Assembly (NCBI GenBank): GCA_023055425.1
Contig: JALGPY010000002.1
Location: 120,602,088-120,666,087, forward strand
Direction: 5' to 3'
Length of the DNA stretch: 64,000 bases
Source of the DNA: Linanthus parryae
Lineage: Eukaryota; Streptophyta; Magnoliopsida; Ericales; Polemoniaceae
Under the pieces are notes generated by a model. That model was not told where the DNA came from, did no database searches, and saw nothing but the letters and a program-made list of their open reading frames with translations. Below are positions 1,006 through 61,000 of this stretch, one piece after another; the stretch's first letter is position 1; every line of letters begins with the position of its first letter. The position numbers and the translations under genes are program-made.

Positions 1006-1127
1006 TGCGTATATACGCAGGGGCTGCGTATATACGCAGCTGTTGTGTATATACGCAGGCAGGGGGTATGGGAGCATGATTTGTGGGCCCTGGTTGCGTA
1101 TATACGCAACCCTTGCGTATATACGCA
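1006..1127 (+). promoter_or_regulatory. Cluster of five TGCGTATATACGCA palindromes in U3
   Basis: Units start at 1006, 1025, 1044 (TGTGT variant), 1095 and 1114, so neighbours within a group are exactly 19 bp apart. TGCGTATATACGCA is a perfect palindrome. The cluster ends 83 bp before the TATA box. It is the counterpart of the TGCGTTTGAACGCA arrays in the nested element, with a different core. Function is inferred from position and geometry only. Confidence 0.85.
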
Positions 1128-1210: not shown

Positions 1211-1219
1211 TATTTAAAG
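1211..1219 (+). promoter_or_regulatory. Probable LTR TATA box (TATTTAAAG)
   Basis: A TATA-like box in the U3 of the left LTR, 83 bp downstream of the last palindrome, with typical LTR promoter placement. Confidence 0.6.
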
Positions 1220-9692: not shown

Positions 9693-11121
9693 TGTTGGGT
9701 TTTGACGTAGGTAACGCAGCGGAATAACAAAAATTAATCCTACTCAAAGCCCACCACGGATCGTCAGGAGGAGACATCATAACATGATAAAGGACATAGT
9801 ATTGTGTACCTTTTTTGTTTGAGAGATCACACGAAGAATATTGTCCTCGTCTCTACGGTTGATCCACGTCTAGAGGTGAGATCTAGATTCTTCCTTCAAC
9901 AAGTGCTAGATTGAACCGGAGGAAGAGGGAAGAAGGAATCAAAGCAACAAGGACAAGGAGGGGTCCGACCCTCCTTTTGGCGCCGACGGGAAGGGGCGGA
10001 CGACCTAGGGCGGTCGCCCCTAGGCTTGTCTTGCTCTCTCTTTTGCTCTCTCTCACTCGCTTGTGTTATGTCTCAATATCATTCACTTCGTGGGAAGGAA
10101 GCTAGAGCCTCCTTTATATACTCCAACAACTCCTTGTTGTTTCCATAAAGGTCCTTCCTAGTTCTCCATGAACTTGGATTAGTCCCTTCCTTGCAAATTA
10201 GTCCTACTAAGTTTGCAAGGTGTTGCCCAATGATCCTCCTTATTAATCAATCATATTAATTAATCCCAAATCTAGCTCTACTCTATTTGACGTGTGACCC
10301 CATAGGTTTCTACTTAGTTGGTAGTAACTTTTACTAACATGGAGCGGTGTCTAGCAACACATCCATGCCACCCAACTAATAGAAATAGTCAGTGATCCCG
10401 ACAAACCACTTGTGCCCAATATCTTATATTGCACTTTCCCTTTTCTCTATATCCGGATTGGACACGATACATAAATAGTCACACTCGTATATCTAATCCA
10501 TAGTTCCTCGATCCTGGGAATATGCTTATGCGAGCAGATAACATCAATATCTCCATATTGATTTATCTAGAGTCTGGCCAGACATTCAATAAGCCGCATC
10601 CCTCGAGTGGCCGTGGATATTTACTCCAATTATGTGGGGGGGACAAATCATATCTACATCACTACGATCTCTAAGCTTGCTTCCTATCATGCCCGATAGC
10701 TATCTTTATGATTACCCAGTTACGGTGTAACGTTTGATAACATCGAAGCACAATATTCCACAACTAGAGTATCTAGTGACTTCAAGTCTAAGGATTGCAA
10801 TTATATTAGCACTACGAGAAGCGATTGTGACTTGACATAATCTAATGCATCCTTCTCGTTGTGGGTCAATCCAGTATGCCATTACCCCTAATGCATACCC
10901 ATGTGTTATACTCGATATCTCCATATCAATCTACCCACATACTAGTCTATATTTGATCGTCCTATTAATCAATATAGTGGACTAGGGATATTTAAGATAA
11001 ACAACACATTGTATCTAAGGACTTCATTATATTAAATATCACAATATATAATAAATGAATATTCTAGCAAAACCAATGTTCATACTAAATATACATTGCC
11101 TCTAGGGAATCTATTCCAAAA
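9693..11121 (-). repeat. 3' LTR of the split copia element
   Basis: 1429 bp, aligning along its length with 29776-31211; by eye the two differ by a few percent, most in the first 450 bp. The terminal TGTTGG has become TTTTGG (reads CCAAAA at 11116-11121). A TATA box (TATATAAAGG) lies at 10111-10120 on the minus strand. The polypurine tract GTGGAAGAC is at 11122-11130. Confidence 0.92.
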
Positions 11122-11135
11122 GTCTTCCACTTGCA

Positions 11136-12892: not shown

Positions 12893-13685
12893 TTATTCAA
12901 GTTCTACAGCCCTCCCACTTGCTTCTTTAGAGATAAACTCTCTTTCTAGAAACACGCTGGTCCGAGAAACAAACACTTTGTTCTCGGTGGGATTGTAGAA
13001 ATAATATCCTTTAGTTTCCTTAGGATATCCCACAAATTTACACTTATCCGCTTTGGGCCCGACCTTGTCTGTTTGTAAACGTTTTACATAGACAACGCAG
13101 CCCCAAATCCTCATAAACAACACTATGGGACACTTCCCAGTCCATATCTCATATGGTGTCTTCATGACTGATTTAGATGGAACGCGGTTAATGGTAAAAG
13201 CTTGCGTCATTAGAGCATGTCCCCAAAATGATATCGGAAGATCTGTATGAGACATCATAGATTGCACCGTATCTAATAGCGTGTGATTCCTCCTCTCGAC
13301 ACGCCATTCCACTATGGCGTTCCGGGTGGAGTGAGATGGGATACTATCTCACACTCTCTAAGATATTCATCAAACTCTTGGCTTAAGTATTCTCCTCCAC
13401 GATCCGATCGTAGAGCCTTAATACTTTTACGAAGTTGCTTCTCTACTTCATTCTTGAATTCCTTGAACAATTCAAAGGATTCGGATTTGGCCTTCATAAG
13501 GTATACAAATCCATATCTACTGAAATGATCAGTAAATGTGATGAAGTAGGTATAACCACCTCTGGCGGGCGTGGGGAATGGTCCACATACATCAGTATGT
13601 ATGAGTGCCAATAACTCACTAGTCCTCTCACCTTTCTTATTGAAAGGGGACTCTGTCATTTTTCCTAATAAACAAGATTCACATG
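12893..13685 (-). pseudogene. Copia integrase (amber stop and frameshift at the catalytic Glu block)
   Basis: The first part (13659-13315) has the core aspartates in HTDVCGPF and LRSDRGGEYLS. A TAG at 13312-13314 replaces a Gln codon, and a one-base deletion a few codons later shifts the frame in the block holding the catalytic Glu. The rest (13312-12896) carries NHTLLDTVQSMM, the YEIWTGKCP segment and the KCKFVGYPKETKGYYFYNP C-terminal fold. TAA at 12893-12895 again replaces a likely Gln. The upstream end at 13685 is where the Athila-like element entered; the reading frame resumes on its far side at 26755. Confidence 0.92.
13681..13685. repeat. Target-site duplication ACATG of the nested Athila-like element, left copy
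   Basis: ACATG at 13681-13685 and at 26750-26754 directly flank the LTR ends TGACAGCG and GCAATCA. This proves insertion into the copia integrase region. Confidence 0.95.
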
Positions 13686-14605
13686 TGACAGCGTAAACCT
13701 ATCTGCTTTTTCGCAAGTGTACGATCAAGTAATATAGAGTATGTAATTGTGACTCTGGTTGTCGAACCCTCGAGAACAGTTTAAGTTTTGCTTATTAGAA
13801 TTAGAATTAGACACAAAGTCTGTAAAAAGGAGGAAGGTTGGGATGTGATTCTACTCACTAAATCGCAGTAAATAAAACAATATTTAGAAAAGCTTATTTT
13901 ATTTTTCTTTTAAGTAAGTTGCAGGAATTGTGGTAGTCGTAAAAATTGATAATTCTAAGAATCTAGGTCCCAGGATCCCCTAGGGTTACTCTCCAGCTTG
14001 CCTGATATATTTGATTTCAGAAACACACAGTGGTTTTGTTTATGCCAACATACCAATAGTACAATCTCCTCTCGGTCTCATGTACCTGTCACTCTCCTGC
14101 AGATTTTCGGGTCCATCATGTATTAAGACTTCAACTTAATGCTTCTGGGCTAGTCCCCTGATTCTTTTCACCTCTCGGTCCATCAAGGCAGAGTACTAAA
14201 TCCTGTCTTTTCTTCCTAACTCTCACTGGTCACTCTCGTGCACCAGATCCTGTCTATAACACTCCTGGGTGATCAAGCCATTCATGTATGCAAATAAAAT
14301 CAAAGACAAGATAATAAACAATCCATCATGTATTAAGACTTCAACTAGCCATGCATCTAAACATCAAACAAACCAGTCTGCTGAATTCATAAACCCTAGG
14401 TTCACCAAGAACCTAGGAAAAAGGTCTAGCTAGCTTGCATTATTGAAAGACAATGTTTCATAAAAGAGAGAAAAGATCAAACAAGTTATTGGCTGAATAC
14501 TGAAAAAACTGCTCCAATCCTGACGGCTCTGAAACTGGCTGCTGTGATGATGATTGTAGATGTGTGAGTGTGTATGTGTGACCCTAATTTTGTGCTGGGA
14601 AACCT

Positions 14606-14614
14606 CCTTTTATA
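14606..14614 (-). promoter_or_regulatory. TATA box of the 3' LTR (TATAAAAGG)
   Basis: A consensus TATA box on the minus strand. Exactly 84 bp (14615-14698) separate it from the nearest palindrome. The 5' LTR has the same box at 25997-26005 with the same 84-bp gap; that copy would drive the genomic transcript. Confidence 0.8.
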
Positions 14615-14698
14615 CTGCCACAGTCTTCAAAACTGATGCACGAAATTCCTGTTTTACCCTCGCAAAAACCCGTCCTGGAAGCTTCTGGAAACCCTCCG

Positions 14699-15062
14699 TG
14701 CGTTCAAACGCAACTCACCTGCGTTCAAACGCAGTGCGTCTGAACGCACTCATCCTGCGTTTGAACGCAGGCCTTAACCACTTTTTCCTTCTGGCTTCTG
14801 GCTTCTCGGACATGTGCGTTTGAACGCAGCTCACCTGCGTTTGAACGCACAACTTGGTCTTTCTGCTTCTGATGTCGAGTCCTGCGTTTGAACGCAGGTT
14901 GTGCGTCTAAACGCACACCTTAGTTTTTCTGCACTTCTGGATCTGAGTCCTGCGTTTGAACGCAGGCCGTGCGTCTAAACGCACGCCTTAGCCTCTTTTC
15001 CGCCATTTTCCCGCTGCTGCCATGTGGTGCGTTTGAACGCAGCTGCCCTGCGTTTGAACGCA
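14699..15062 (-). promoter_or_regulatory. Array of 12 near-palindromes (TGCGTTTGAACGCA type) in the 3' LTR U3
   Basis: Units start at 14699/14720, 14735/14756, 14815/14836, 14883/14902, 14951/14970 and 15028/15049. These are six pairs with start-to-start pitches of 21, 21, 21, 19, 19 and 21 bp. The outer arms TGCGT and ACGCA are invariant; the central four bases vary (TTGA, TCAA, CTGA, CTAA). Pair-to-pair distances are irregular (36-80 bp). Sequence between pairs is CT-rich and not repeated exactly. Position upstream of the TATA box suggests transcription-factor sites. Confidence 0.9.
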
Positions 15063-15347
15063 CAACTTAGGCTTTTTCTGCTCAGCTTTCCTGATACGCT
15101 GACTCCCCATCCAAGTCAATCTCATGCATTTCTCGGCACCTGTTACCTGCACACCATAACATGTACCCGCGATCATATCCAACAAACAAAAGTACGCATA
15201 AAATTACTCAAATCTTGCAGTCATGTTCTATAAATCTCTGCCTCGTATCAGGTGGAAAATAAGCTGAAAATGGGCAAACTCAACTCTCACAGGGTTAAAA
15301 CCAATGGTAAAAAGATGTCCCAGACTAATCCCATTTTCAAGCTATCA

Positions 15348-15383
15348 AAATACCCCCACACTAAACTCTGCTCGTCCCGAGCA
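15348..15383 (-). promoter_or_regulatory. Polypurine tract and conserved hairpin of the nested Athila-like element
   Basis: On the minus strand the hairpin TGCTCGGGACGAGCA (15369-15383) precedes the tract TTAGTGTGGGGGTATTT (15348-15364), which abuts the LTR. Both match the left element's 562-596 region. Confidence 0.85.
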
Positions 15384-16804: not shown

Positions 16805-18310
16805 CTACATGCTGCCTCCTAGGGGGTACTGGATACCGGGTCTGCCGGGGTCGCCAACACTGTCTGCGTGTTCCGGACTCGGTGTGGGGTCATGGCCAGA
16901 GAAGCTGTCGTAGGGCCGACTATCCTCCATTGTCCAACTGGGACAATTATCACTCGAATAGCGGTCCGGGAAGTTAAATCTCTTACCAGGCATGTTGCTC
17001 TGAATTTCAGCGAGTGCCGCCTCATGAGCTCTCAATGCGGCTGTGTTAGCGTGGTAAATATGCTTCTGGGTCTTGAACAACTTCCCAAGACCCCTGGCCA
17101 TTTTCTTGACCGTCCGTACCAGGTAGTTTTGCACTTTTTCTTGGGCCTTAATTTTCTTTCTGACCCATTCCTCATGCTCAGTCCTCTCCAGGCGCCCAAA
17201 AGAACTGCGCCTGGCCCCTCTGCTGGACTGCCCTAAGTCGGGCTCGGTCTGCCTATTTTCACTGGAACTAGCAGATCGTGGCAGTCGGAGGGGACCTAGT
17301 AAGGCTGGAAAACCCCCATCACCGGGAGGAGGTGGTGGTGGCATGCCAACACCCCCACCCTGAGGCGGAGCATCATCATCATCATCGTCCACTTGGACAA
17401 ATTCTGGAGGCCCGTGCAGAGCCTCGTGCAAAGCACATCTCATGTTTCGGTACTTGCGTACCTGCACAGGTCGGATATCTCTCAGCTCGCCAGGAATTAC
17501 CACCCGATAATCCTGCGCCATTTTTGTTAACATCCCCAGGAGACCCAAACCCTTCTTGCTGTGGGACTCTCTTCGTTCCCGAAAAAACTCACAAATAATC
17601 TCCGGGAGGCTCACAGGCTCTCTGGCCATCAGACAGTACACCAAAAGGGCAATATTATAATCTATGCGGGTAAAATGTTTAATACCCACAACCCTGTTAT
17701 TTACCCACTCAGTCCACCATCTCGCCTCTCGAATCAAATAGGTCGCAGGGAGTTTCCGGTAGGAAGGACTCCGTTCAGGACAGTACCAAGCAGCGCCTGG
17801 TACACCAGCACACAAGGTGGTTAGGATCTGTTCGCTAAGCTGTTCAGAGTGATGACGCCTCAGTTCCTGAAACTGACAGTCATCCAACACTAGTTCCAGA
17901 CCCAGACTCTCTCGAATACTCTCTGGGGTGATCCGAATCCATCTCTTTCTGCAGTAAATCCAGTCAATTGACTGGGCTTCACTGTTCATGCACTGCTGGA
18001 GATTGCTGAAAATCTCCTTAGCCAGCACAGAACTGACTTGCAGATTGGTAAAACAAGTAAACAAATACCCAAAATAATCCTGCCCAGTATAGTTGAACAG
18101 TTCATCCCCCATTGCCACTCTATCACGGGGAAAAGTTCTCTCAGCAGGTATATCATACCTAATCTTTTTGTCTTGCAGAAAGAAACGGTGAGCCTCCATG
18201 TTAACAAACCTATGGTCGCAGAAATGGTCAGCCCTAAGCAATATGCAATCTATGATGTTCAAGGGTGCAATCGCCCTATCAGGCCTCATGTATGGGCTAT
18301 CCTCATCCAT
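16805..18310 (-). CDS. Athila ORF3, env-like / plant transposon protein of unknown function
   Basis: 501 codons from ATG at 18308-18310 to a stop at 16805. The first residues are MDEDSPYMRPDRAIAPLNII; an extension to a TTG at 18322 is possible but not needed. The N-terminal half is globular, with YFGYLFTCF, RIDYNIALLVYCLMAREPV and LPEIICEFF. It is followed by an acidic run (six Asp), a six-proline stretch, a Ser/Arg-rich linker and a basic helical region with LVRTVKKMARGLGKLFKTQ. In Athila elements an ORF after integrase is traditionally called env-like, but here I see no signal peptide or clear membrane span. It resembles the plant transposon proteins common in Athila elements. It is unbroken, unlike gag and pol. 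A TATA box and palindrome array lie upstream, implying its own transcript. Confidence 0.7.
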   Translation of the reverse strand: MDEDSPYMRPDRAIAPLNIIDCILLRADHFCDHRFVNMEAHRFFLQDKKIRYDIPAERTFPRDRVAMGDELFNYTGQDYFGYLFTCFTNLQVSSVLAKEIFSNLQQCMNSEAQSIDWIYCRKRWIRITPESIRESLGLELVLDDCQFQELRRHHSEQLSEQILTTLCAGVPGAAWYCPERSPSYRKLPATYLIREARWWTEWVNNRVVGIKHFTRIDYNIALLVYCLMAREPVSLPEIICEFFRERRESHSKKGLGLLGMLTKMAQDYRVVIPGELRDIRPVQVRKYRNMRCALHEALHGPPEFVQVDDDDDDAPPQGGGVGMPPPPPPGDGGFPALLGPLRLPRSASSSENRQTEPDLGQSSRGARRSSFGRLERTEHEEWVRKKIKAQEKVQNYLVRTVKKMARGLGKLFKTQKHIYHANTAALRAHEAALAEIQSNMPGKRFNFPDRYSSDNCPSWTMEDSRPYDSFSGHDPTPSPEHADSVGDPGRPGIQYPLGGSM

Positions 18311-18614: not shown

Positions 18615-18624
18615 TATATATAGG
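18615..18624 (-). promoter_or_regulatory. Internal TATA box upstream of ORF3 (CCTATATATA)
   Basis: On the minus strand the box lies 84 bp (18623-18706) from the nearest palindrome of the internal array, the same gap as in both LTRs. This supports an internal promoter for ORF3. No transcript evidence is available. Confidence 0.65.
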
Positions 18625-18706: not shown

Positions 18707-19276
18707 TGCGTTTGAACGCAGCCTCTGCGTTTGAACGCACTGCTTCAACTTTTCTGGAAATTTGAATTTTTTCTTGATCTGCGTTTGAACGCACCCCATG
18801 CGTTTGAACGCAGTGCTTGAAGTTCCATGAAGTTGCTGGGTTTGTTGAATTGCGTTTGAACGCACATGAGTTGCGTTTAAACGCACTGCTTGTCTTCTGC
18901 AATGCTTCTGATGAGCTGCGTTTGAACGCAGGTAATCTGTGTTTAAGCGCATGCCTTATCTCTAGAAATTCTCTGCTGACTGGTTCTTGCGTTCGAACGC
19001 ACCCTCTGCGTTTAAACGCACGTCCTTAGGCTTTTCCAACCCATCTTTCTCTTCTTGCGTTTGAACGCACCTTGTGCGTTTGAACGCACCACTTGTTGGC
19101 TGGGAATCTTCATTGTGTGATCTGCGTTTGAACGCAGGTGGTCTGCGTTTGAACGCAGAAGTGTTAGCCATTTTCAGTGTTTCTTCGGTCTGTTGGTGGG
19201 TCTGCGTTTGAACGCAGGGTGTCTGCGTTTCAACGCACATGTGCGTTTGAACGCATGTCTCCTGCGTTTGAACGCA
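18707..19276 (-). promoter_or_regulatory. Internal array of 18 near-palindromes between integrase and ORF3
   Basis: Units start at 18707/18726, 18780/18799, 18851/18872, 18917/18938, 18988/19007, 19056/19075, 19123/19144, 19203/19224 and 19242/19263. Nine pairs have pitches of 19, 19, 21, 21, 19, 19, 21, 21 and 21 bp. Most read TGCGTTTGAACGCA on the plus strand. 18988 is the perfect palindrome TGCGTTCGAACGCA, and 18872 and 19007 are the perfect TGCGTTTAAACGCA. The linkers differ from those in the LTR, so this is not a simple LTR duplication. Confidence 0.9.
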
Positions 19277-19449: not shown

Positions 19450-21444
19450 TCACGGAAGGTCGAGGTAGATTGCCTCTATCTCCATGATCTCCTGAGGATC
19501 TCTGTATGGCTTGACTCTGTTCCCATTAACCTTGAAAACTGTAGTGTCCCTCGGGTTCTCCAGTTCCACCACTCCCCATGATGTAATGTCCTTCACAATA
19601 AATGGTCCAGACCATCTTGAGCGCAGCTTCCCTGGATAGAATTTCATCCTTGAGTTGTAAAGGAGAACCTTCTGCCCGATTTCTATCTTCTTTGGTAGAA
19701 TGCGATTGTCATGCCACTTCTTTGTTTTTTCTTTATAAATTTTGGCACTCTCATAAGCAGTTTTACGGAATTCCTCTAGTTCGAGGAGTGCCATCTTCCG
19801 TTTGTTTCCCGATAAACTGTGATCCATATTCAGCTGTTTGATCGCCCAGTATGCTTTGTGCTCTAATTCTACTGGTAAGTGACATGCTTTTCCAAACACC
19901 AGCTGGTATGGGGACATTCCCAGCGGGGTTTTGTAAGCAGTTCTGTATGCCCAGAGCGCATCATCCAGCTTTAATGACCAGTCCTTGCGTCCAGGATTCA
20001 CAGTTTTCTCCAGTATGCTCTTTATCTCCCTGTTGGACACCTCTGCTTGCCCGTTTGCCTGAGGGTGATAAGGCAGTGATACCTTATGGATAGGCACCCT
20101 GTACTGCTTTAAAACCTTGGCAAAAACCTTATTGATAAAATGAGAACCTTCATCACTGACCATGGCCCTCGGTGTTCCGAATCTGGTAAAGATATTACGT
20201 TTGAGGAATCTTTCCACGACTGACGCATCGTTCTTCTGACAAGCTATTGCTTCCACCCATTTTGACACGTAATCTACTGCCAGTAAGATGTAGAGATTTC
20301 CCATAGACGAAGGGAATGGACCCATAAAATCAATTCCCCATACGTCGAAAGGCTCGACTTCCTTCCAAAGGGTCATGGGCATTTCATTTGGCTGGGAAAT
20401 ATTTCCTGTCCGTTGGCAGCGATCGCAACTCTGCGCATAATCATGGCAGTCCTTGAAGACTGTTGGCCAGAAAAATCCTGACTGCAGCACTTTGTGGGCT
20501 GTTCTCGGTCTGCTGAAGTGTCCCCCACATTGTGCTGAGTGGCAGTGCTGAATTACCTCCAAAATCTCGTGACATGGGATGCAACGACGGAGAATATTAT
20601 CCGCCCCTTGCTTGAATAGATAAGGATCGTCCCAGAAATATTGCTTGCAGTCTGAAATAAACTTCTTTTTCTGCCAAGGGGTGATGTCTTCAGGGAGTGC
20701 TCCATGGACCAAATAATTGGCTATGGCATAATACCAGGGCCGTCTGTTGGTCTTGATCTTCATAATATGTTCATCCGGAAAATTTTCTTGAATTGGAACC
20801 GCTTCTTCTGTAGGGTTTTCCAGGCGAGATAGATGATCAGCTACCACATTTTCAACTCCCTTTTTATCCCTGATTTCGACATCAAATTCATGCATCAGCA
20901 GAATCCAACGCAGCAACCTTGGCTTTGCATCCTTCTTCTCCAGTAAGTATTTCAGTGCACTGTGATCTGTGAATATGATGACTTTTGAACCTACCAGGTA
21001 GGATCTGAACTTATCCAGGGCAAAAACGACTGCCAACAGCTCCTTCTCTGTAGTCCCATAATTAATCTGTGCCTCATTCAGGACCCTGCTGGCATAGTAG
21101 ATGACACTGCACACTTTGTCTTTTCGCTGTCCCAGTAACGCGCCCACTGCGTAATCACTGGCGTCGCACATCAGCTCGAATGGGAGGGTCCAGTCTGGCG
21201 TTGTGATAATGGGTGCAGTTGTCAGCCTCTCTTTAAGCACGTCAAAGGCTTCTTTGCAGGCTTCATCAAATACGAAGGGCACATCTTTTCCCAACAAATT
21301 ACATAGTGGCTTTGTAATTTTTGAGAAATCTTTAATAAACCTTTTGTAAAATCCTGCATGGCCCAAAAAACTCTTAATTGCCTTCACTGTGGTTGGATAT
21401 GGCAGCTGCTTGATCACCTCTATTTTTGCCCTGTCTACTTCCAG
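19450..21444 (-). pseudogene. Athila RNase H and integrase
   Basis: A minus-strand frame open from the stop at 21445-21447 to 19450. RNase H is marked by [19 protein letters not shown], the [20 protein letters not shown] block and [16 protein letters not shown]. The integrase zinc finger follows (HSAQCGGHF ... SCDRCQ). The catalytic core has [25 protein letters not shown] and [17 protein letters not shown], giving the D, D and E residues. The C-terminal part ends with the [11 protein letters not shown] barrel and NGNRVKPY. No chromodomain is present, as expected for Athila. The domains look complete, but the TGA upstream separates them from RT. Confidence 0.93.
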
Positions 21445-22260
21445 TCATTTGCTGGAAATCCTGTGTCCCAGCACTATTCCTTCAGTAACCATGAAGTGGC
21501 ATTTTTCCCAGTTGAGTACCAGGTTAGTTTTTCTGCAGCGAATCAGAACTCTGGCCAGATGGTACAAGCAGTCTTCAAAGCTGTCTCCAAATAACGAAAA
21601 ATCATCCATAAAAACTTCCAAATTTTTCTCTATCATGTCAGAAAAAATGGCCATCATACATCTTTGGAATGTTGCTGGAGCATTGCATAATCCAGATGGC
21701 ATTCGTCTAAAGGCAAACGTTCCGTATGGGCAAGTGAACGTCGTCTTTTCTTGATCTTCTGGATTTATATAGATCTGGTTGTAGCCAGAGTACCCGTCAA
21801 GAAAGAAATAATAAGCATGGTGAGCCAGTCTGTCCAACATCTGGTCCATGAATGGCAGCGGAAAGTGGTCTTTCAGTGTTGCATCGTTCAGCTTCCGGTA
21901 GTCCATACAGATTCGCCAGCCAGTGACAGTGCGCTGGGCGATCTGCTCCTGATCAGCATTTTGTACTACTGTAATACCCCCTTTCTTTGGTACACACTGG
22001 ACAGGACTGACCCAGGTGCTGTCTGATATGGGGTATATAATTCCTGCTTCTAGCCACTTCATGACCTCCTTACGTACCACATCTTTCATAATTGGGTTTA
22101 GTCTCCGTTGAGACTGGATGACTGGCTTCTTTCCTTCTTCAATTCTTATTTTGTGCATGCAGTAATCTGGACTGATTCCCTTGAGGTCCGCAATTGTCCA
22201 TCCGATGGCTTCTTTATGCTCTCGAAGTACCTCCAGCAGCTTTTGTTCCTGTTCCTGAGA
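21445..22260 (-). pseudogene. Athila reverse transcriptase
   Basis: The frame runs from just after a TGA at 22261-22263 to another TGA at 21445-21447; the first ATG is at 22158. Motifs include EAGIIYPISDSTWVSPVQCV, GWRICMDYRKLNDAT, the catalytic FFLDGYSGYNQI, PSGLCNAPATFQRCM and VFMDDFSLFG (MDDF active site). The second TGA sits where Gly is usual, just before RNase H (a likely G-to-T change). RT and RNase H would be made as one polyprotein in an intact copy. Confidence 0.93.
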
Positions 22261-22263
22261 TCA

Positions 22264-23385
22264 AAGAGAAGAAACAATTACCGGCAGAGTATTATTTTCA
22301 CCAATAAAAGCGTACCTGAGGTGGTCTGGCAACTGTTTCAATTCCAGGACTGGTGGTTCCTGAAGTGATGGGACCAGTGTCATTTTCTGCTCGCCTCCTT
22401 CATCCCTATATAGAGTGACCCAACTCTCTGTTCCCATGATCTGCTCATCCTGTTGCTCCTCTGTTTCCTCTGGATACATGTCCTCAAATTCTTCCCATAA
22501 ATTTTCCATCTCCTCATTCTCCAGGTCATCAATTACCTCTACTGCAAAACAGTTTTCATGCCCATAATGGTCAGGAAGCTGGAGAGATTTGAAGACGTTG
22601 AATTTCACCTTTTCTTCATTTATTTGCATGGACAACTCTCCACTTTTGCAGTTAATAATGGCTTCACCAGTTGCTAGGAAGGGTCTGCCCAGGATTAGCG
22701 GGACCTCTCCGGCCTCCATATCCAGGATCACAAAATCTGCTGGAAAAATAAGCTCTCCAACTTTTACCAGGATATCTTCAATTACTCCATAGGCAGGTTT
22801 CACAGATCTGTCAGCCATTTGAAGCATAATTCTTGTTGGACGTGGTTCTCCGACTCCCAGACTTTTGAAGATGGTCAGTGGCATCAGGTTGATGCTGGCG
22901 CCCAAGTCGCATAAGGCTTTTCCTGTGTATGCACTGCCCAGGGTCACTGGAATAACAAAGCTGCCAGGGTCTTTCTTTTTCAGTGGTAGACCATTTTTCA
23001 CACAACTGCTCGCTTCTGCCGTCAGATTTACTGTTTCGAAGTCACTCATTCGCCTTCTCCCATACAATATGTCTTTGAGAAATTTCGCATAAGTAGGCAT
23101 TTTGGCGAGTGCTTCGGCAAAATGTATGTTTATCTGTAATTGCTTGAATACCTCCAGAAATCTGGCGTAGTCTTTGCTGTCATCTCTCTTGCGTGTCTTC
23201 AGAGGGTAAGGAACCTCCTTAGAAATTGGTACTGTTTCTGGGCTACTCTCATTAGTCTGCGCTGCTTCCTGCTCGACCGAACCCCTTTTCTGAGGGTTTG
23301 CGGTTGAACTGTCTTCCCTGTCAATCACTTCCTGTTCAATAATTTTTGACTTTTCTGCACGTGCATGGCTGGGATACGGCGGATC
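22264..23385 (-). pseudogene. Athila protease and linker
   Basis: The frame is continuous with gag apart from TAG at 23386-23388. The aspartic protease has KALCDLGASINLMPL as active site (DLGAS) and VILGRPFLATGEAIINC as the flap/C-terminal motif, both typical of Athila. The upstream linker contains KDYARFLEVFKQLQINI and FAEALAKMPTYAKFLKDIL. TGA at 22261-22263 separates it from RT. The enzyme would cleave the gag-pol polyprotein. Confidence 0.9.
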
Positions 23386-24860
23386 CTACAGTGCAATTCC
23401 ACTCCGAGTTGTGATAGCATTGATTTGAGCGCGTGGATTGTTCACTGTATTTGACGGTAAGTTCCCTGGGGCTCGTTCTGCCTGGTTCTGTGCAAGCTGA
23501 CCATTCTGTACCTCCAAGTTGCGGATAGCAATCTTCATTTGGCTTACATCGGCAGTTAACGACTCCATCTGCGCAAATCTAGTTTCCCACTGCTTATTAA
23601 ATTTCTCCATATAGGACTCAAAATGTTGCTGTGACAAATTTAGCTGTGGTGGTGCTGCTGGTGCGTGCTGTGCTGGGGCTGTCTGTTGTGCCTGTGGCCT
23701 GTGCTGGAATCCTGGTGCATAGACTGCTGCATTGGGATTTCCGTAGCGAAACCCTGGATGATCACGTGTGCCAAATCTGTAGCGACTAGGATCCCACTGC
23801 TGCTGAACATAGTTGGCATCTTCGGTCTGAAGCTCCAGAATTGCCGCGTCAAAGTCAGGTTCGTCTACTGATGCCACAGGCTTCTTCTCTGTATACACCT
23901 TTTTAACTAAGTCCTGTACCACTTTCGTGAGATTGTCAATCCTGTCATCAGCCACTGGTTCTGCTATCGCTGTGAGCCTGCGGTCATCAAACAGGCGAGT
24001 ATCCTGCTTGGCTAATTGTTTCATCAGTTCATATGCTCCATCCGTATCCACATGGTATAGAAAGATACCCCCAGCTTCCCTATCAATTCTGTCAGCATTC
24101 TCCCTGTCGAGAGCATGGTAGAATACCTGCAGAATTTTTGCGTCCCCGAAGCCGTGATTGGGGCATTTTTTAACGAGTCTCATCAACCTGTCCCATGCGT
24201 CTACCACCGTTTCCCCATCTGCTGTTTGAAAGATAAAATCTCACTCTGCAGCTTGATAACACGAGATGCGGGGTAGAATTTTGCCAAAAAATCAGTAACA
24301 CACCCCTCCCAGGTAGTGATAGACCTCGGTGGTCTTGCTTCCAGCCAGTCTTTTGCTGTTCCGAACAAGCAGTATGGGAATAAAATCAGCTTTAGCGTAT
24401 CCGCTTCGACTCCTCTATACTTAATCTTGTTGCAGTAGTCTTCGAACTTTCCAAGGAAGTCGTTTGGATCTTCATCTGCTTTCCCATTGAAAGGACAATG
24501 AGTCTGGGCGGTCTGAATGGTGGATGATTTCAGATCGAAGTGCTCTGCTGTAATGGGTGGCACTACGATAGCTGGTTGATGTCCTCCGGTCGGGACTTCA
24601 AAGTTTTCGACTAACGCCCTTCCAGACCTGTTGTAAGTCCTCTTATTGTTCCTGGCAGCAAAACCTGCTGCTATCAGCTCCTCAATGTAAAGAGCCATCT
24701 GTGCTGGAGTACGTTGCTGCTGTCCTGTGGGTGTTCCTGTTTCGGTTGTGGTGTCTTCTCCGTGCTCAGACATCGCGGCTGGGTGTCTGCGACTTTTCTC
24801 TCTGAAAAGTTTTTCGGGATCTTCAAGTGGTGATACCAGTTTGCTAGGCAATCTGGACAT
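23386..24860 (-). pseudogene. Athila gag (one-base frameshift)
   Basis: It starts at ATG 24858-24860. The retrotransposon gag domain shows HCPFNGKADEDPNDFLGKFE, LILFPYCLFGTAKDWL and WEGCVTDFLAKFYPASR. Near 24205-24215 the frame shifts by one base within the conserved segment preceding VDAWDRL, and the second part (24207-23389) continues with the capsid-like region, a QQ/Pro-rich stretch and the INAITTRSG motif that usually marks the gag-protease junction. No CCHC zinc knuckle is seen. TAG at 23386-23388 (probably from a Gln codon) ends it. Gag forms the particle around element RNA. Confidence 0.92.
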
Positions 24861-24984
24861 AAACTAGAATAGCCTGAAAATCAGAATTCAAGAGCAATGA
24901 GTCAAAAGAAAATAAACGTAAAAAGAAAAGAAAAAACTTTGAGACTTATTCTAATGTCTTTTTAACAAAAACTGTAACCGTTCC

Positions 24985-25001
24985 CCGGCAACGGCGCCAA
25001 A
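24985..25001 (-). promoter_or_regulatory. Primer binding site, tRNA-Asp type
   Basis: On the minus strand TGGCGCCGTTGCCGGGG complements the 3' end of plant tRNA-Asp. It starts six bases from the LTR end. This primer is typical of Athila elements. Confidence 0.9.
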
Positions 25002-25996
25002 AACTTGACAGCGTAAACCTATCTGCTTTTTCGCAAGTGTACGATCAAGTAATAAAGAGTATGTAATTGTGACTCTGGTTGTCGAACCCTCGAGAACAGT
25101 TTAAGTTTTGCTTATTAGAATTAGAATTAGACACAAAGTCTGTAAAAAGGAGGAAGGTTGGGATGTGATTCTACTCACTAAATTGCAGTAAATAAAACAA
25201 TATTTAGAACAGCTTATTTTATTTTTCTTTTAAGTAAGTTGCAGGAATTGTGGTAGTCATAAAAATTGATAATTCTAAGAATCTAGGTCCTAGGATCCCC
25301 TAGGGTTACTCTCCAGCTTGCCTGATATATTTGATTTCAGAAACACGCAGTGGTTTTGTTTATGCCAACATACCAATAGTACAATCTCCTCTCGGTCTCA
25401 TGTACATGTCACTCTCCTGCAGATTATCGGGTCCTATCGGTCCACCTAAATCTGCAGGTTCGTTCTAAGTCTGCTAGGGTTACAGGTTCTCCTCTCGGTC
25501 TCCCCCTAAACGTCTAGCAGTTGGTCTAATGCTTCTGGGCTAGTCCCGTGATTCTTTTCACCTCTCGGTCCATCAAGGCAGAGTACTAAATCCTGTCTTT
25601 TCTTCCTAACTCTCACTGGTCACTCTCGTGCACCAGATCCTGTCTATAACACTCCTGGGTGATCAAGCCATTCATGTATGCAAATAAAATCAAAGACAAG
25701 ATAATAAATAATCCATCCTGTATTAAGAATTCAACTAGCCATGCATCTGAACATCAAACAAACCAGTCTGCTGAATTCATAAACACTAGGTTCACCAAGA
25801 ACCTAGGAAAAAGGTCTAGCTAGCTTGCATTATTGAAAGACAATGTTTCATAAAAGAGAGAAAAGATCAAACAAGTTATTGGCCGAAAACTGAAAAAAAC
25901 TGCTCCAATCCTGACGGCTCTGAAACTGGCTGCTGTGATGATGATTGTAGATGTGTGAGTGTGTATGTGTGACCCTAATTTTGTGCTGGGACACCT

Positions 25997-26005
25997 CCTT
26001 TTATA
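25997..26005 (-). promoter_or_regulatory. TATA box of the 5' LTR (TATAAAAGG)
   Basis: Minus strand, 84 bp (26006-26089) from the nearest palindrome at 26090. This is the expected promoter of the genomic RNA. Confidence 0.8.
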
Positions 26006-26089
26006 CTGCCACAGTCTTCAAAACTGATGCACGAAATTCCTGTTTTACCCTCGCAAAAACCCGTCCTGGAAGCTTCTGGAAACCCTCCG

Positions 26090-26453
26090 TGCGTTCAAAC
26101 GCAACTCACCTGCGTTCAAACGCAGTGCGTCTGAACGCACTCATCCTGCGTTTGAACGCATGCCTTAACCACTTTTTCCTTCTGGCTTCTGGCTTCTGGG
26201 ACATGTGCGTTTGGACGCAGCTCACCTGCGTTTGAACGCACAACTTGGTCTTTCTGCTTCTGATGTCGAGTCCTGCGTTTGAACGCAGGTTGTGCGTCTA
26301 AACGCACACCTTAGTTTTTCTGCACCTCTGGATCTGAGTCCTGCGTTTGAACGCAGGCCGTGCGTCTGAACGCACGCCTTAGCCTCTTTTCCGCCATTTT
26401 CCCGCTGCTGCCATGTGGTGCGTTTGAACGCAGTTGCCCTGCGTTTGAACGCA
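26090..26453 (-). promoter_or_regulatory. Array of 12 near-palindromes in the 5' LTR U3
   Basis: Starts at 26090/26111, 26126/26147, 26206/26227, 26274/26293, 26342/26361 and 26419/26440; pitches 21, 21, 21, 19, 19 and 21, identical to the 3' LTR. A few units differ from their 3' LTR partners by one base (26206 has TTGG for TTGA; 26361 has CTGA for CTAA). Confidence 0.9.
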
Positions 26454-26754
26454 CAACTTAGGCTTTTTCTGCTCTTTTTCTGCTCAGCTTTCCTGATACG
26501 CTGACTCCCCATCCAAGTCAATCTCATGCATTTCTCGGCACCTGTCACCTGCACACCATAACATGTACCCGCGATCATATCCAACAAACAAAAGTACGCA
26601 TAAAATTACTCAAATCTTGCAGTCATGTTCTATAAATCTCTGCCTCGTATCAGGTGGAAAATAAGCTGAAAATGGGCAAACTCAACTCTCACAGGGTTAA
26701 AACCAATGGTAAAAAGATGTCCCAGACTAATCCCATTTTCAAGCAATCAACATG

Positions 26755-29775: not shown

Positions 29776-31211
29776 TGTTGGGTTTTGACATAGGTAACGC
29801 ATCGGAATAACAAAAATTAATCCTACTCAAAGCCCACCATGGATCGTCAGGAGGAGACATCATAACATGATAAAGGACATAGTATTGTGTACCTTTTTGG
29901 TTTGAGAGATCACACGAAAATTATTGTCCTCGTCTCTACGGTTGATCCACGTCTAGAGGTGAGATCTAGATTCTTCCTTCAACAAAAGCTAGCTTGAATT
30001 GGAGGAAGAGGGAAGAAGGAATCAAAGCAACAAGGACAAGGAGGGGTTCGGCCCTCCTTTTGGCGCCGACGGGAAGGGGCGGACGGCCTAGGGCGGTCGG
30101 CCTTAGGCTTGTCTTGCGCTCTCTTTTTTTCTCTCTCCCACTCTCTTGTGTTATGTCTCAATAACATTCACTTCGTGGGAAGGAAGCTAGAGCCTCCTTT
30201 ATATACTCCAACAACTCCTTGTTGTTTCCATAAAGGTCCTTCCTAGTTCTCCATAAACTTGGATTAGTCCTATCCTTGCAAATTAGTCCTACTAAGTTTG
30301 CAAGGTGTTGCACAATGATCCTCCTTATTAATTAATCATATTAATTAATCCCAAATCTAGCTCTACTCTATTTGACGTGTGACCCCATAGGTTTCTACTT
30401 AGTTGGTAGTAACTTTTACTAACATGGAGCGGTGTCTAGCAACACATCCATGCCACCCAACTAATAGAAATAGTCAGTGATCCCGACAAACCACTTGTGC
30501 CCAATATCTTATATTGCACTTTCCCTTTTCTCTATATCCGGATTGGACACGAGACATAAATAGTCACACTCGTATATCTAATCCATAGTTCCTCGATCCT
30601 GGAAATATGCTTATGCGAGCAGATAACATCAATATCTCCTTATTGATTTATCTGAGTCTGGCCAGACATTCAATAAGCCGCATCCCTCGAGTGGCCGTGG
30701 ATATTTACTCCCATTATGTGGGGGGGGGGGACAAATCATATCTACATCACTACGATCTCTAAGCTTGCTTCCTATCATGCCCGATAGCTATCTTTATGAT
30801 TACCCAGTTACGGTGTAATGTTTGATAACATCGAAGCACAATATTCCACAACTAGAGTATCTAGTGACTTCAAGTCTAAGGATTGCAATTATATTAGCAC
30901 TACGAGAAGCGATTGTGACTTGACATAATCTAATGCATCCTTCTCGTTGTGGGTCAATCCAGTATGCCATTACCCCTAATGCATACCACATGTGTTAGAC
31001 TCGATATCTCCATATCAATCTACCCACATACTAGTCTATATTTGATCGTCCTATTAATCAATATAGTGGACTAGGGATATTTAAGATAAACAACACATTG
31101 TATCTAAGGACTTCATTATATTAAATATCACAATATATAATAAATGAATATTCTAGCCAAAACAATATTCATACTAAATATACGATTGCCTCTAGGGCAT
31201 CTATTCCAACA
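29776..31211 (-). repeat. 5' LTR of the split copia element
   Basis: 1436 bp, minus-strand start TGTTGGAATAG, end AACCCAACA. TATA box TATATAAAGG at 30196-30205. It inserted into a Stowaway-like MITE whose remainder begins at 31212. Confidence 0.93.
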
Positions 31212-31456
31212 AGCTCTTGCCCACCATTCTGAATATATGACTCGTATATGGGTCACTTTGACCGGGTGATTTCGGTAGCAAAATGATGCGATTTTTTGAT
31301 AATTTTTCACTGTGTTGTAGAGCAACTTATACTCTACAACACCATGAAAAAATTATCAAAAAATTACATTACATTGCTATGCAAATCACCGAGTCAAAAT
31401 GACCCAGTGAATAGAGGCAAAAGTCAAATTGGTGGGGAAGAGCTGGGACTGAGTGG
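31212..31456. mobile_element. Stowaway-like foldback MITE, left end removed by the copia LTR
   Basis: The two halves are inverted copies meeting near 31322 (TTGTAGAG ... CTCTACAA). The right terminus GGGACTGAGTGG is followed by TA. The left terminus is absent at the LTR boundary. Confidence 0.8.
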
Positions 31457-51500: not shown

Positions 51501-51585
51501 GAAATAATTCACTGAATGTTGATAACTTTCATTGAACGTACCTAATTTTATTTTAGACTGAAGTCTTGAATGCGATTTTTTGCAG

Positions 51586-52194
51586 TTGTGTGTGCCCTTG
51601 AATGTTGAGAATAATCACTGGTTCTTGTTGGTGATCAGCTTCCACGAGAAAAAGGTCCTCATCCTGGACTCAATGGCTAACCCTCTGTACAACACGACTG
51701 AGGTAGATACTAATATTCACTCCATCAATGACTTCTTTCAAAGATGTTATGGTGTGAGAAAGAACTGCGCTGACATCACCAGCTTCCCGGTTATTCAAAC
51801 TGCACGTTGGGGCAAAATTCCTATGCCGGAGAGCAGGTTAGTGGTCACTTTCATCACCGTTTGTAGCTTCATCTTGAATCCATTACACCGTTTTCACTTT
51901 GTTTCATTTTCAATATGCGAATCCGTATTTCTCAGTGGCAGCGACTGTGGACCGTATGTTTGCTTTTACATGGGTCATATCAGAGATCTAATTTCGGAGC
52001 CCAGGGTGTCGATTTTTGTGGAGCAGAAGCACATCCGCGTGTGGGTGACCTATAAAATAGTCAATTCTTCCCATAACCGCCGGAGGAAATATGTGTTGGA
52101 CAAAATCAAACAAAGAAACTTTGACGAGACAAAACTGAGCGTGTCTGGTGACACATATGAGAGTATATATGCTGGTGCGGATATAAAACAATGA
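51586..52194 (+). pseudogene. Ulp1-like C48 peptidase catalytic exons
   Basis: Exon 51586-51836 has NNHWFLLVISF with the catalytic His and VLILDSM with the Asp. After an intron starting GTTAGT, exon 51935-52194 has GSDCGPYVCFYM with the catalytic Cys, then ends at TGA. The His-Asp-Cys order and spacing fit the C48 (Ulp1/SENP) family. The core itself has no stop. It could cleave SUMO-like proteins if expressed, but the upstream part of the gene is disrupted. Confidence 0.85.
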
Positions 52195-58067: not shown

Positions 58068-61000
58068 TGCAACACCCCACCGAGCCGCAAGGCCGGCCGG
58101 GCCCCACGTTCGGAAGAGATGTCTCCGCCCGAGGTGATGAGCCTCATTGGGAACGGATAAGGATCGTCGGTTCACAGCTAGTACAACCATCGATAACTCA
58201 AAATACTTCAAATTACAACTTTTACAGTTTCCATAAATACAAACAGTGATAATCTTTTGAAAATCAATGAATACACTTTTAGGTGAGATAATATACTATG
58301 TGAGGTTTCCGACTAGCGAGTCTTCCTGTCCAAAGTGTCGTGAACGTTCCCCCACCTCGATAGCCAACCTGCGGTTTTAAAATAGCAAAAGCCGACGCAG
58401 TTTTTACAGAAAATAGTCAGCAAACGGCTGAGTAAGCTAACACCCATAGCACGTAAACAGATGATGAGACATATGACAGGAATAATCAATTCGCTGATAA
58501 ATAATAAATATCAAACACTCGCGGGAAAAGCGCTCACAACTGATTCGGTGTGTCCAACTCAACGATCTCAAATTTCGTGTTATTAACCCGAAGATGTGGT
58601 CCATCCCGGGATCTCACTGTTAATAGCCATTCACAATAATACTTTAATCTCAAGATATCTCATAACCGTAGGAATCGAGTCCCGAAATCCATTTTAGTAA
58701 CTAGTTGATACGGGGCGTGACCATATCCAATCCACAACCTCTTTCTCATATGTGCAAAAGCACTACCACAACCATAACTCAAACACAGGAGGTTCGCATC
58801 ACAGCGCCTCATAACCATAACTCAATCACAGGAGGTCAGAGCCTCATAATCACATAATCTCATAATCAGTAACCAACACAATATGTCAGAAATGTATCGT
58901 ATCAGGGATATGGCACAAACCCACACACAACAGCTTTCCACTTTACATAATTACCAATTTTCTTTCAAGGTGTAGAATCGTGTAAGGAGCTCCGAACAAA
59001 AAGCCGGTGTGGCAAAAAATTAAAGTAATCGAAGTATGATTGAGAGATATTCAGATTCGACCAAAAAGTGAGCGGTGTGCTACTCTTGGTAACCGAGGCA
59101 ACGATTCGAAATTTCGTAGTTTCAACCCAATGACGTGGTCCGTCTTGGGGTATCACTTTTACAAGTATTTCACAATATCATATAGATGTTTCACTTTCGG
59201 ATTGTTATTTAGATTTGGATACCAATTTCAAACGAGACTTCAAAGAGGAGTATAAATAAACAACTCAAATAAATCAAGTACGGTAGCGATTTCACAAATA
59301 ACTCACGCGATACGCGAAATGAAAGAAAGGCACGCGAGGCCAGGCATATTAACTTACACTAACGCGACCAAGAACGAGACAGTATAAATTTTCCAACTCT
59401 TTATTTGACATTCTCAACCAATTATCATTTATAATTCCGACATTTTTGGACTCAATAATTCTGCCCCGCTTAGGGGGGTATACTCCCATAATACTGCCCA
59501 ATTAAGGGGAAATAATTCCATAAATTCTGCCCCACTTAAGGGGGTATACTCTCATAAAACTGCCCCATTAAGGGGGATATATCAATAATTCTGCCCCACT
59601 TTGGGGGGTATACTCCCATAATACTGCCCCACTTAGGGGGGATATACTCAAGTATAATTTCTTTCATATATGGTGGTCGTGTTTTGATCGGTACTTCATT
59701 TCGAACATAGGATTTAGCTGTTCTTCTAGCGGCGTCGTTCGGACTCTTATTCTAGACTATCGTTATTCATGCGATACTTCAATATAGAATATTCTGAAGC
59801 TAGTAAATAATTCACATAAAGCACGTATTGTGGTATTTCAAAAATAACGCACGCGATAACACGAAAGAAATGAAAGGCTCGGAAGACTAGGCATATTAAC
59901 TTACCAAAAATCCAAGCACGTCCTAATTCGTTCTCGTCTACGGAATCGTCACCTACAAATCGGAGCTTCTAACTTAATATAACCTCAAAAATATACAACC
60001 TATATTTATTTCTAGCTCCTTTTATTTTTCTCAAGACAATATTAATTTTAATTATTAGTTATAAACCCAAAAACATATTTTCTTCAATAATATTTACCCC
60101 CAAAATAATTTATAAATAATAATCTAATCAAATTAAAGAAAAACTAATTTCATAAATAAATCTGAAATTAAAAACTGCATACAATAACTAAAAGTTTCTG
60201 AAATGACAACTGCCTCCCCCAAAGTTTCTGAAACGACATTATAACCCCCCCGAAAACTTTCTGAAAATGACACTTTAACCCCCTAAACATGAACATTCAA
60301 ACTAATCGATTAAAACATGGATTCGAAGCCTTAAAACTTAATTTTGATTACTAAAAACAACTCAGGGGAAGATTTCAAGCATACCCAGTCCAAAAATCGC
60401 GAGAAACGGTGAAGAAATGAGACGGGTCAAGATCGCCGTCGGGGTCGCCGGAGTTGGAGCTCGCCTGGGCGTACTCCGGTCGTTCTCGTCTTCGGTTGAG
60501 GCCTTCTGGAGCTTAGTCGGACTCCTCTGAGTCGAATGGTACGGGTTTGGAGGCACGGGTCGTCATGGTTGGACTCCGGCGAAGAACTCGCCGGAATCCA
60601 TGGAGGTCGCCGGAGTTTCGTCTCTTCCTCTGCTATGCGGCCTCTGCTGCTGCTGTGGTTGTTCAGAGAAGGAGAGAGAGGTCAGGGGGATATGAGGGAG
60701 AAGGCAGAGAGTGATGTGGGTGGCGGTCGTTGCTCCCGTCGGTGTTTTCTCCGGCGAGTTCTCCGGTGGTAGCAGCGGCAGTGGGTTGCCGCTGCTGTTG
60801 CTGCTGCTTCTCGTCGGCAAGACAGAGGGAAGGGGGAGAGGGGCAGAGATCAGAGAGATAGAGGGATGGTGGTGAGGTGGCGATGGGTTCTCGCCGGTGG
60901 CAGCGGTGGTGGCTGGTCGTGACTCCCAGCTGCTGCCGCTGTCTTCTTCTGGTGGTGTTCGACAGAGAGGAGGGAAGGCAGAGAGAGGGGAGAGAGATAG

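What the first reader, a model, noticed from the sequence alone, without database searches (positions are those of the whole stretch)
14699..15062. Paired 14-bp near-palindromes with a strict 19- or 21-bp pitch in an LTR promoter
Twelve TGCGTNNNNACGCA units form six pairs. Start-to-start distances within pairs are 21, 21, 21, 19, 19 and 21, while distances between pairs vary from 36 to 80 bp. Two helical turns are about 21 bp, so the pair would present both sites on nearly the same DNA face. Arms are invariant while linkers drift. This looks like constraint for a protein binding as a pair of dimers, not a plain tandem repeat. The 5' LTR keeps the same pattern. I know of no described Athila element with this feature, but could not search.
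Basis: partly seen in the sequence, partly recalled or inferred. Interest (0 to 1): 0.92.

Follow-up and report, generated by a model that had tools for sequence, protein, structure and literature searches.

The report
Paired palindrome arrays driving Athila retrotransposons
A plant Athila retrotransposon carries one 14-letter near-palindrome over and over, in tightly spaced pairs, in its two end-repeats and again just ahead of an extra gene, with its arms nearly unchanged while the DNA between them drifts; it likely serves as docking sites for a protein that would switch the element on.

Summary
TGCGTN4ACGCA occurs 45 times in the window (0.01 expected). The listed cluster lies in the 3' LTR of a minus-strand Athila-type element; the 5' LTR has the same 12 sites. 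A third array (17 exact sites, one degenerate) lies inside the element, upstream of a second TATA-like box and of ORF3 (PF20167). A second family (TGCGTATATACGCA) has a similar plan. Genome-wide there are 24,770 pairs (reversed control 358), 8,027 at pitch 19 (control 1); the first 50 listed span pitches 17-21, mostly 18-19. Between two subfamilies the internal arms differ at 0/169 sites (2/180 in reverse), linkers at 68/276 (60/254). ORF3 is under purifying selection (dN/dS 0.09). A TATA-like box starts 83-85 nt after the last site in 26 of 27 sampled LTR arrays, but not in the eight B-type internal arrays. Best reading: paired sites for a dimeric DNA-binding protein that would drive the LTR and ORF3 promoters; host factor or ORF3 product is untested. 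The 'same helix face' argument fails for pitches 18-19. Sirevirus palindromes in LTRs and upstream of ENV are a published precedent in another superfamily. RNA hairpins remain a rival, strongest in family B.

The parts
13686..15347 (-). 3' LTR of Athila-type element A (TGATAG...CTGTCA)
   Evidence: 97.6 and 97.9% identical to the 5' LTR over two BLAST blocks
25006..26749 (-). 5' LTR of element A (TGATTG...CTGTCA)
13681..13685 (.). target-site duplicate CATGT, low side
26750..26754 (.). target-site duplicate CATGT, high side
14699..15062 (-). array of 12 TGCGTN4ACGCA sites in six pairs, 3' LTR (the given finding)
14606..14614 (-). TATAAAAGG box starting 84 nt after the last site
26090..26453 (-). 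the same 12-site array in the 5' LTR
25997..26005 (-). TATAAAAGG box of the 5' LTR, 84 nt after the last site
18707..19276 (-). internal array, 17 exact plus 1 degenerate site, between the end of pol and ORF3
18615..18622 (-). TATATATA box of the predicted internal promoter, starting 84 nt after the last internal site
16805..18310 (-). ORF3 (501 aa from its first Met), PF20167 Transposase_32; purifying selection against the L007 copy
19450..21444 (-). RNase H and integrase open frame
21445..22260 (-). reverse transcriptase open frame
22261..23385 (-). aspartic protease region
23386..24863 (-). gag, in two overlapping open frames (the gag-pol reading of this copy is interrupted)
24982..24999 (-). 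primer-binding site TGGCGCCGTTGCCGGGGA
15348..15365 (-). polypurine tract region next to the 3' LTR
1006..1127 (+). family B array in an LTR: 4 exact plus 1 degenerate TGCGTATATACGCA site
1211..1218 (+). TATTTAAA box of the family B LTR, 83 nt after the last site

Best explanation
The arrays are likely cis-regulatory modules: each TGCGTN4ACGCA palindrome would bind one dimer of a sequence-specific DNA-binding protein, two neighbouring sites at fixed spacing would bind a cooperating pair of dimers, and the stacked pairs would activate the LTR promoter and a second, predicted promoter that would transcribe ORF3. Shown: array positions, pitch, arm constraint against drifting linkers, the near-constant distance to a TATA-like box in sampled LTR arrays, and selection on ORF3. 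Inferred: protein binding, cooperation, promoter activity, and that the arrays raise transcription or keep these CpG-bearing promoters open. The binder is unknown; a host transcription factor is the default and the ORF3 product the bolder alternative.
For: 45 sites versus 0.01 expected. Genome-wide 24,770 pairs versus 358 for the reversed pattern; 8,027 at pitch 19 versus 1. Internal array, window scored in L007: arms 0/169, core 3/68, linkers 68/276; L007 scored in window: arms 2/180, core 4/72, linkers 60/254 (Fisher p 2e-16 and 4e-13 for arms versus linkers), at a synonymous divergence of 0.31 and 0.45 in two flanking genes. LTR array, L007 scored in the window's 3' LTR: arms 4/125, linkers 43/148. 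Of two-mismatch arm sites within 90 nt of an exact site, 0 of 2 are compensatory (small number). A TATA-like box (TATAWA, TATTTAA or TATATAT) begins 83-85 nt after the last site in 26 of 27 LTR arrays and 83-84 nt after it in both A-type internal arrays. A and A2 differ by exactly 2 bp of pitch (19 versus 21) at four homologous pairs.
Against: No binder, footprint, transcript or methylation data. The eight B-type internal arrays have no TATA-like box at 83-85 nt (one at 66 nt in L010, none matched in seven). The LTR stretch between array and TATA can be aligned across A, B and C, so the constant LTR distance may be shared ancestry. In the same A/A2 alignments one pair differs by 1 bp (21 versus 22) and one neighbouring spacing by 3 bp (18 versus 15), so pitch is not absolutely fixed. 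Families were found by searching for the arms, so equal arms between families is partly how they were chosen. The four LTR arm differences and 13/138 outside the array give only p 0.046. In family B the pairs sit in longer inverted repeats, which a plain binding-site model does not need. Pairs are related by descent, so counts are not independent.
Confidence: 0.6

Rival explanations
1. The units act as RNA hairpins in the element's transcript (the U3 of the 3' LTR and the internal array would both be transcribed), for packaging, dimerisation or processing, not as DNA sites.
For: 46 distinct family B units fold to a mean of -48.5 kcal/mol against -41.3 with swapped flanks, 39 of 46 more stable; 295 of 460 flank positions are complementary, and GT exceeds AC on the sense strand 44 to 20. 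One B unit has a perfect 12-bp outer arm pair (L013:2576). The promoter-proximal four-site unit of A folds at -54 to -56 kcal/mol.
Against: A units gain almost nothing from their own flanks (mean -0.69 kcal/mol, 24 of 39; 123 of 390 positions complementary), and their antisense strand folds better than the sense strand (-32.5 versus -29.0). No compensatory arm change was seen (0 of 2). The steady distance to TATA in LTR arrays is a DNA-level feature. The B copies are related, so the GT excess is weak.
Confidence: 0.2
2. The ORF3 product itself binds the arrays in the LTRs and upstream of its own gene, as a self-recognising activator or anti-silencing factor.
For: ORF3 lies directly downstream of the internal array in A, and B elements carry a PF20167-like ORF3 there too, though the one scanned is below the Pfam cutoff. 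ORF3 is under purifying selection (dN/dS 0.086 over 496 codons). Integrase is 82% identical between A and B but ORF3 only about 30-34% over the longer matches, alongside a change of motif core, as expected if protein and site change together. Two B elements without an ORF3 match (L013, L022) keep 9 and 8 exact internal sites. VANC proteins of VANDAL elements work this way (PMC5735166 passages), and a 2026 paper leaves open whether Athila ORFs modulate methylation (PMC12844716 passages).
Against: No DNA-binding domain was recognised by Pfam; the structure model is unusable (pLDDT 38). Sense extra 3' ORFs of plant retroelements are discussed as envelope-like (PMC7264820 passages). Arms are unchanged between A and B although ORF3 is very different.
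Confidence: 0.2
3. The arrays are by-products of inverted and tandem duplication with local gene conversion, without function.
For: 68-bp and 21-bp tandem periods; the four-site unit of A is an inverted duplicate of a pair.
Against: Arms are conserved many-fold better than the linkers between them; copies made by duplication would keep linkers too.
Confidence: 0.06

Closest known systems
Sirevirus repeated motifs (RM) in LTRs and upstream of ENV (PMC2829016, section 9 read, other passages)
   Same: Palindromic motif with a short variable centre, at least 8 and up to 32 copies per element, clustered in the LTR upstream of the TATA box and, in elements with ENV, again upstream of it; CpG-bearing.
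   Different: Sireviruses are Ty1/copia and 12 of their 13 motifs have a CGG-CCG core; here the element has the Ty3/gypsy gene order and TGCGT-ACGCA arms. The section read mentions no fixed pair spacing.
VANDAL elements and VANC anti-silencing proteins (PMC5735166 and PMC10398659, passages)
   Same: Dense short motifs in non-coding parts of the element, beside an element-encoded gene that diverges between families.
   Different: VANDALs are DNA transposons; their 9-base motif is arrayed in one orientation; protein binding is shown there and not here.
Athila elements with a 3' additional ORF (PMC11728184 and PMC7264820, passages)
   Same: PF20167 ORF between pol and the 3' LTR; a nuclear signal was predicted for the sunflower protein.
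   Different: The passages read describe no palindrome array. An own promoter for an extra gene is reported there for maize Grande (antisense), not for Athila.
TnpA of Spm and MURA of MuDR (named in PMC10398659 passages; TnpA site layout recalled)
   Same: Element-encoded protein linked to lower DNA methylation of its own or non-autonomous copies.
   Different: Proteins of DNA transposons; no relation to ORF3 was tested.

Membership tests
Athila lineage (Ty3/gypsy) | gag-PR-RT-RH-INT order on one strand between LTRs, short target duplication | tested here: met
   Pfam order on the minus strand; 5-bp duplicate CATGT
Athila lineage (Ty3/gypsy) | 3' additional ORF with PF20167, as reported for a sunflower Athila in PMC11728184 | tested here: met
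   ORF3 of the window matches PF20167 at 56.3 bits, cutoff 45; the paper was seen as passages
Athila lineage (Ty3/gypsy) | reverse transcriptase clade | not tested
   no reference RT set was used; the lineage name rests on ORF3, gene order and recalled PBS/PPT form
Sirevirus RM | Ty1/copia element | tested here: not met
   integrase follows RNase H, the gypsy order
Sirevirus RM | CGG-CCG palindromic core (12 of 13 in their Table 3) | tested here: not met
   arms are TGCGT/ACGCA
Sirevirus RM | copies upstream of TATA in the LTR and upstream of the extra 3' gene | tested here: met
VANC/VANDAL anti-silencing | element-encoded protein shown to bind the motif | not testable with these tools
   needs binding assays
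VANC/VANDAL anti-silencing | DNA transposon | tested here: not met
   LTR element with reverse transcriptase

The most novel reading that the evidence does not exclude
Athila retrotransposons run a self-recognition circuit: the ORF3 protein binds paired palindromes in the LTRs and in its own promoter, activates and de-silences its own family, and relatives that have lost ORF3 keep the sites to borrow it. That would be a retrotransposon counterpart of VANC anti-silencing.
Probability: 0.2. Interest if true: 0.87.

Novelty: new variant of a known kind. Interest (0 to 1): 0.64.

Why it matters
How plant retrotransposons escape silencing, and what their extra 3' genes do, are open questions; a 2026 paper says that whether Athila-encoded ORFs modulate methylation remains to be investigated (PMC12844716 passages). 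This element offers a short exact motif, a spacing rule, the same array at the LTRs and upstream of a selected ORF, so binding, promoter activity and methylation can be tested directly. A like layout in Ty1/copia Sireviruses suggests convergent control.

Tried and rejected
Same-face helical phasing: rejected as the general rule, because pitches 18 and 19 are the commonest in the listed genome sample and 20 is nearly absent. A universal 84-bp rule: rejected for the B-type internal arrays. Structure of ORF3 from one sequence: pLDDT 38, not used further, no fold search made. Protein database search with ORF3: 7,991 candidates scored, none at E 0.001 or better. The pair pattern (4-7 nt between sites) in viral contigs: 0. 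Full-text search for the motif letters: 4 papers, none about a plant retrotransposon by title and abstract start. Search for TGCGT with ACGCA, transcription factor and Arabidopsis: 0.

Not obtained: whole-genome counts at pitches 18, 20 and 21 and of single sites; a genome-wide ORF3 search was planned and never sent.

Full report
What is there. The window lies in a 1.51-Gb genome held as G000; a KIB1-4 gene match, a plant snoRNA match and the retroelements point to a plant. Exact TGCGTN4ACGCA occurs 45 times in 64 kb against 0.01 expected, in four clusters: 14699-15062, 26090-26453, 18707-19276 and 1006-1127. The first three belong to one element on the minus strand: LTRs 26749-25006 and 15347-13686, duplicate CATGT on both sides, primer site at 24982-24999 and polypurine tract next to 15348. 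Pfam gives gag, protease, reverse transcriptase, RNase H, integrase and then ORF3 with PF20167. The gag-pol reading of this copy is interrupted; ORF3 is open. I call it Athila from gene order, the PF20167 3' ORF (PMC11728184, passages) and recalled PBS/PPT form; no RT tree was made.

The given cluster. It is in the 3' LTR, upstream of a TATAAAAGG box.

The other array. Between the end of pol and ORF3 there are 17 exact sites and one degenerate site, again mostly in pairs at 19 or 21, followed 84 nt later by TATATATA and then ORF3. The arrays thus mark the LTR promoter and a second, predicted promoter of one element.

Other families. The cluster at 1006-1127 has TGCGTATATACGCA and lies in an LTR with the same polypurine tract. 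I fetched 26 ten-kilobase stretches from one contig, chosen from the hits listed (pitch 19) and their neighbours, so the sample is enriched for pitch 19 and for these arms. They and the window hold 37 clusters with at least two exact sites (the four short overlapping loci L001-L004 were left out): families A and A2 (TTGA-type cores), B1 and B2 (ATAT cores), and C (TCAA/TCAG cores; its LTR is 83 and 86% identical to A's over the two longest matches). I class 27 clusters as LTR and 10 as internal, from PBS/PPT neighbours or sequence class. In 26 of 27 LTR clusters a TATA-like box begins 83-85 nt after the last site (in C the last site has one mismatch); the exception is L024, none matched. Of the ten internal clusters, the two A-type ones have it at 83-84; of the eight B-type ones, one has a box at 66 nt and seven have none matched within 130 nt (sequences).

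Pitch. Genome-wide, pairs with 0-29 nt between sites number 24,770 per strand, the reversed pattern 358; with exactly 5 nt, 8,027 against 1. The first 50 distinct pairs listed, open to pitches 14-43 but covering only the first 7.2 Mb of one contig, have pitches 17:1, 18:26, 19:18, 20:1, 21:4. In the loci (sites with up to two mismatches) pitches up to 22 count 13:1, 15:6, 18:21, 19:69, 20:1, 21:37, 22:2. Distinct pairs (one mismatch allowed, pitch 16-22): A/C 45 (21:27, 19:16, 18:1, 22:1), B 57 (19:42, 18:14, 20:1). Aligning A with A2 shows 19 and 21 exchanged by 2 bp at four pairs, but also one 1-bp change (21 to 22) and one 3-bp change (18 to 15). Many pairs descend from shared ancestors, so these are not independent events. 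Why 20 is rare is unexplained; helical phase does not explain it.

Constraint. Window scored in L007, internal array: arms 0/169, cores 3/68, spacers 16/49, linkers 68/276, outside 12/150. L007 scored in window: arms 2/180, cores 4/72, spacers 21/56, linkers 60/254. LTR array, L007 scored in the window 3' LTR: arms 4/125, cores 7/51, spacers 15/37, linkers 43/148, outside 13/138 (Fisher for arms versus linkers 2e-16, 4e-13 and 4e-9, for LTR arms versus outside 0.046; sites treated as independent). Sites were defined as exact in one copy and scored in the other. Synonymous divergence of the same pair is 0.31 for RNase H-integrase and 0.45 for ORF3. In the family B LTR comparisons arm differences were 0-3 per pair of copies, the worst 3/46. 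Loci and window hold 237 exact sites and 29 one-mismatch sites near them.

ORF3. dN/dS is 0.086 (496 codons) between A and A2, and 0.20-0.32 in three B comparisons. A and B integrase share 82% of residues, ORF3 about 30-34% over the longer matches. The B ORF3 scanned is PF20167-like but below the cutoff (35.4 bits against 45). Two B2 elements (L013, L022) show no ORF3 match and no RNase H-integrase match beyond a 74-residue remnant in L022; their long frame looks like gag-protease by eye (not Pfam-scanned, RT not searched apart). They keep 9 and 8 exact internal sites. The ORF3 structure model was unusable.

Inverted repeats in B. Distinct B pairs have complementary outer flanks (8 nt: 265/456 versus 219 with sd 9.5, 0 of 500 shuffles), and 46 units are on average 7.2 kcal/mol more stable with their own flanks than with swapped ones. 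A units hardly are (136/360 versus 120 with sd 8.1, 12 of 500; 0.7 kcal/mol over 39 units). This is the main evidence for an RNA-level or cruciform role in B.

Interpretation. Nearly invariant palindromic arms, drifting centres and linkers, strict spacing and placement before TATA-like boxes are best explained by paired dimer-binding sites that would activate transcription. Sequence constancy without compensatory change argues against pure hairpin selection for the arms, on small numbers. Nothing here identifies the binder. Sirevirus RMs (PMC2829016, section 9 read) show the same layout in Ty1/copia, so I rate this a new variant of a known kind. My nine answered paper searches, judged by their listings and the passages named, showed no description of this motif in Athila; the library holds open-licence papers only.

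Noticed in passing
window 24149-24254 (+): Rfam snoR71 match (47.3 bits, gathering 40) antisense inside the gag region of the Athila element.
   Followed up: no
window 9693-11126 and 29776-31218: 96.7% identical direct repeats about 20 kb apart flank retroelement open frames that look copia-like by eye; the Athila element appears nested inside that element.
   Followed up: partly
window 58068-60082 and 61987-64000: 99.75% identical 2-kb direct repeats carrying a different near-palindrome (CTGCCCCACTTAGGGG type), neighbours mostly 31-33 bp apart: possibly another LTR with its own palindrome array.
   Followed up: partly
window about 19360 and L007 about 7860: A TATA-like box also lies 82-84 nt from the other end of the A-type internal array, on the antisense strand, in both copies: possible bidirectional promoter.
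   Followed up: no
L005:5665, L010:4535, L012:6649, L016:3230, L018:6087, L020:4814: A second polypurine-tract-like sequence (GTGTGGGGGTACTTCACATG type) about 860-930 bp upstream of the 3' LTR tract in family B elements.
   Followed up: no
L013, L022: Shorter Athila relatives with no ORF3 match that keep LTR and internal palindrome arrays; probably non-autonomous.
   Followed up: partly
G000:C1:4016926-4016959: A pair with other cores (TGCGTATAAACGCA and TGCGTAAATACGCA) at the rare pitch 20; perhaps a further family. The stretch could not be fetched.
   Followed up: no
window 51562-52194 (+): Open frame that looks like the end of a Ulp1-type protease, as seen in some Mutator-like elements (by eye, recalled; not scanned).
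   Followed up: no
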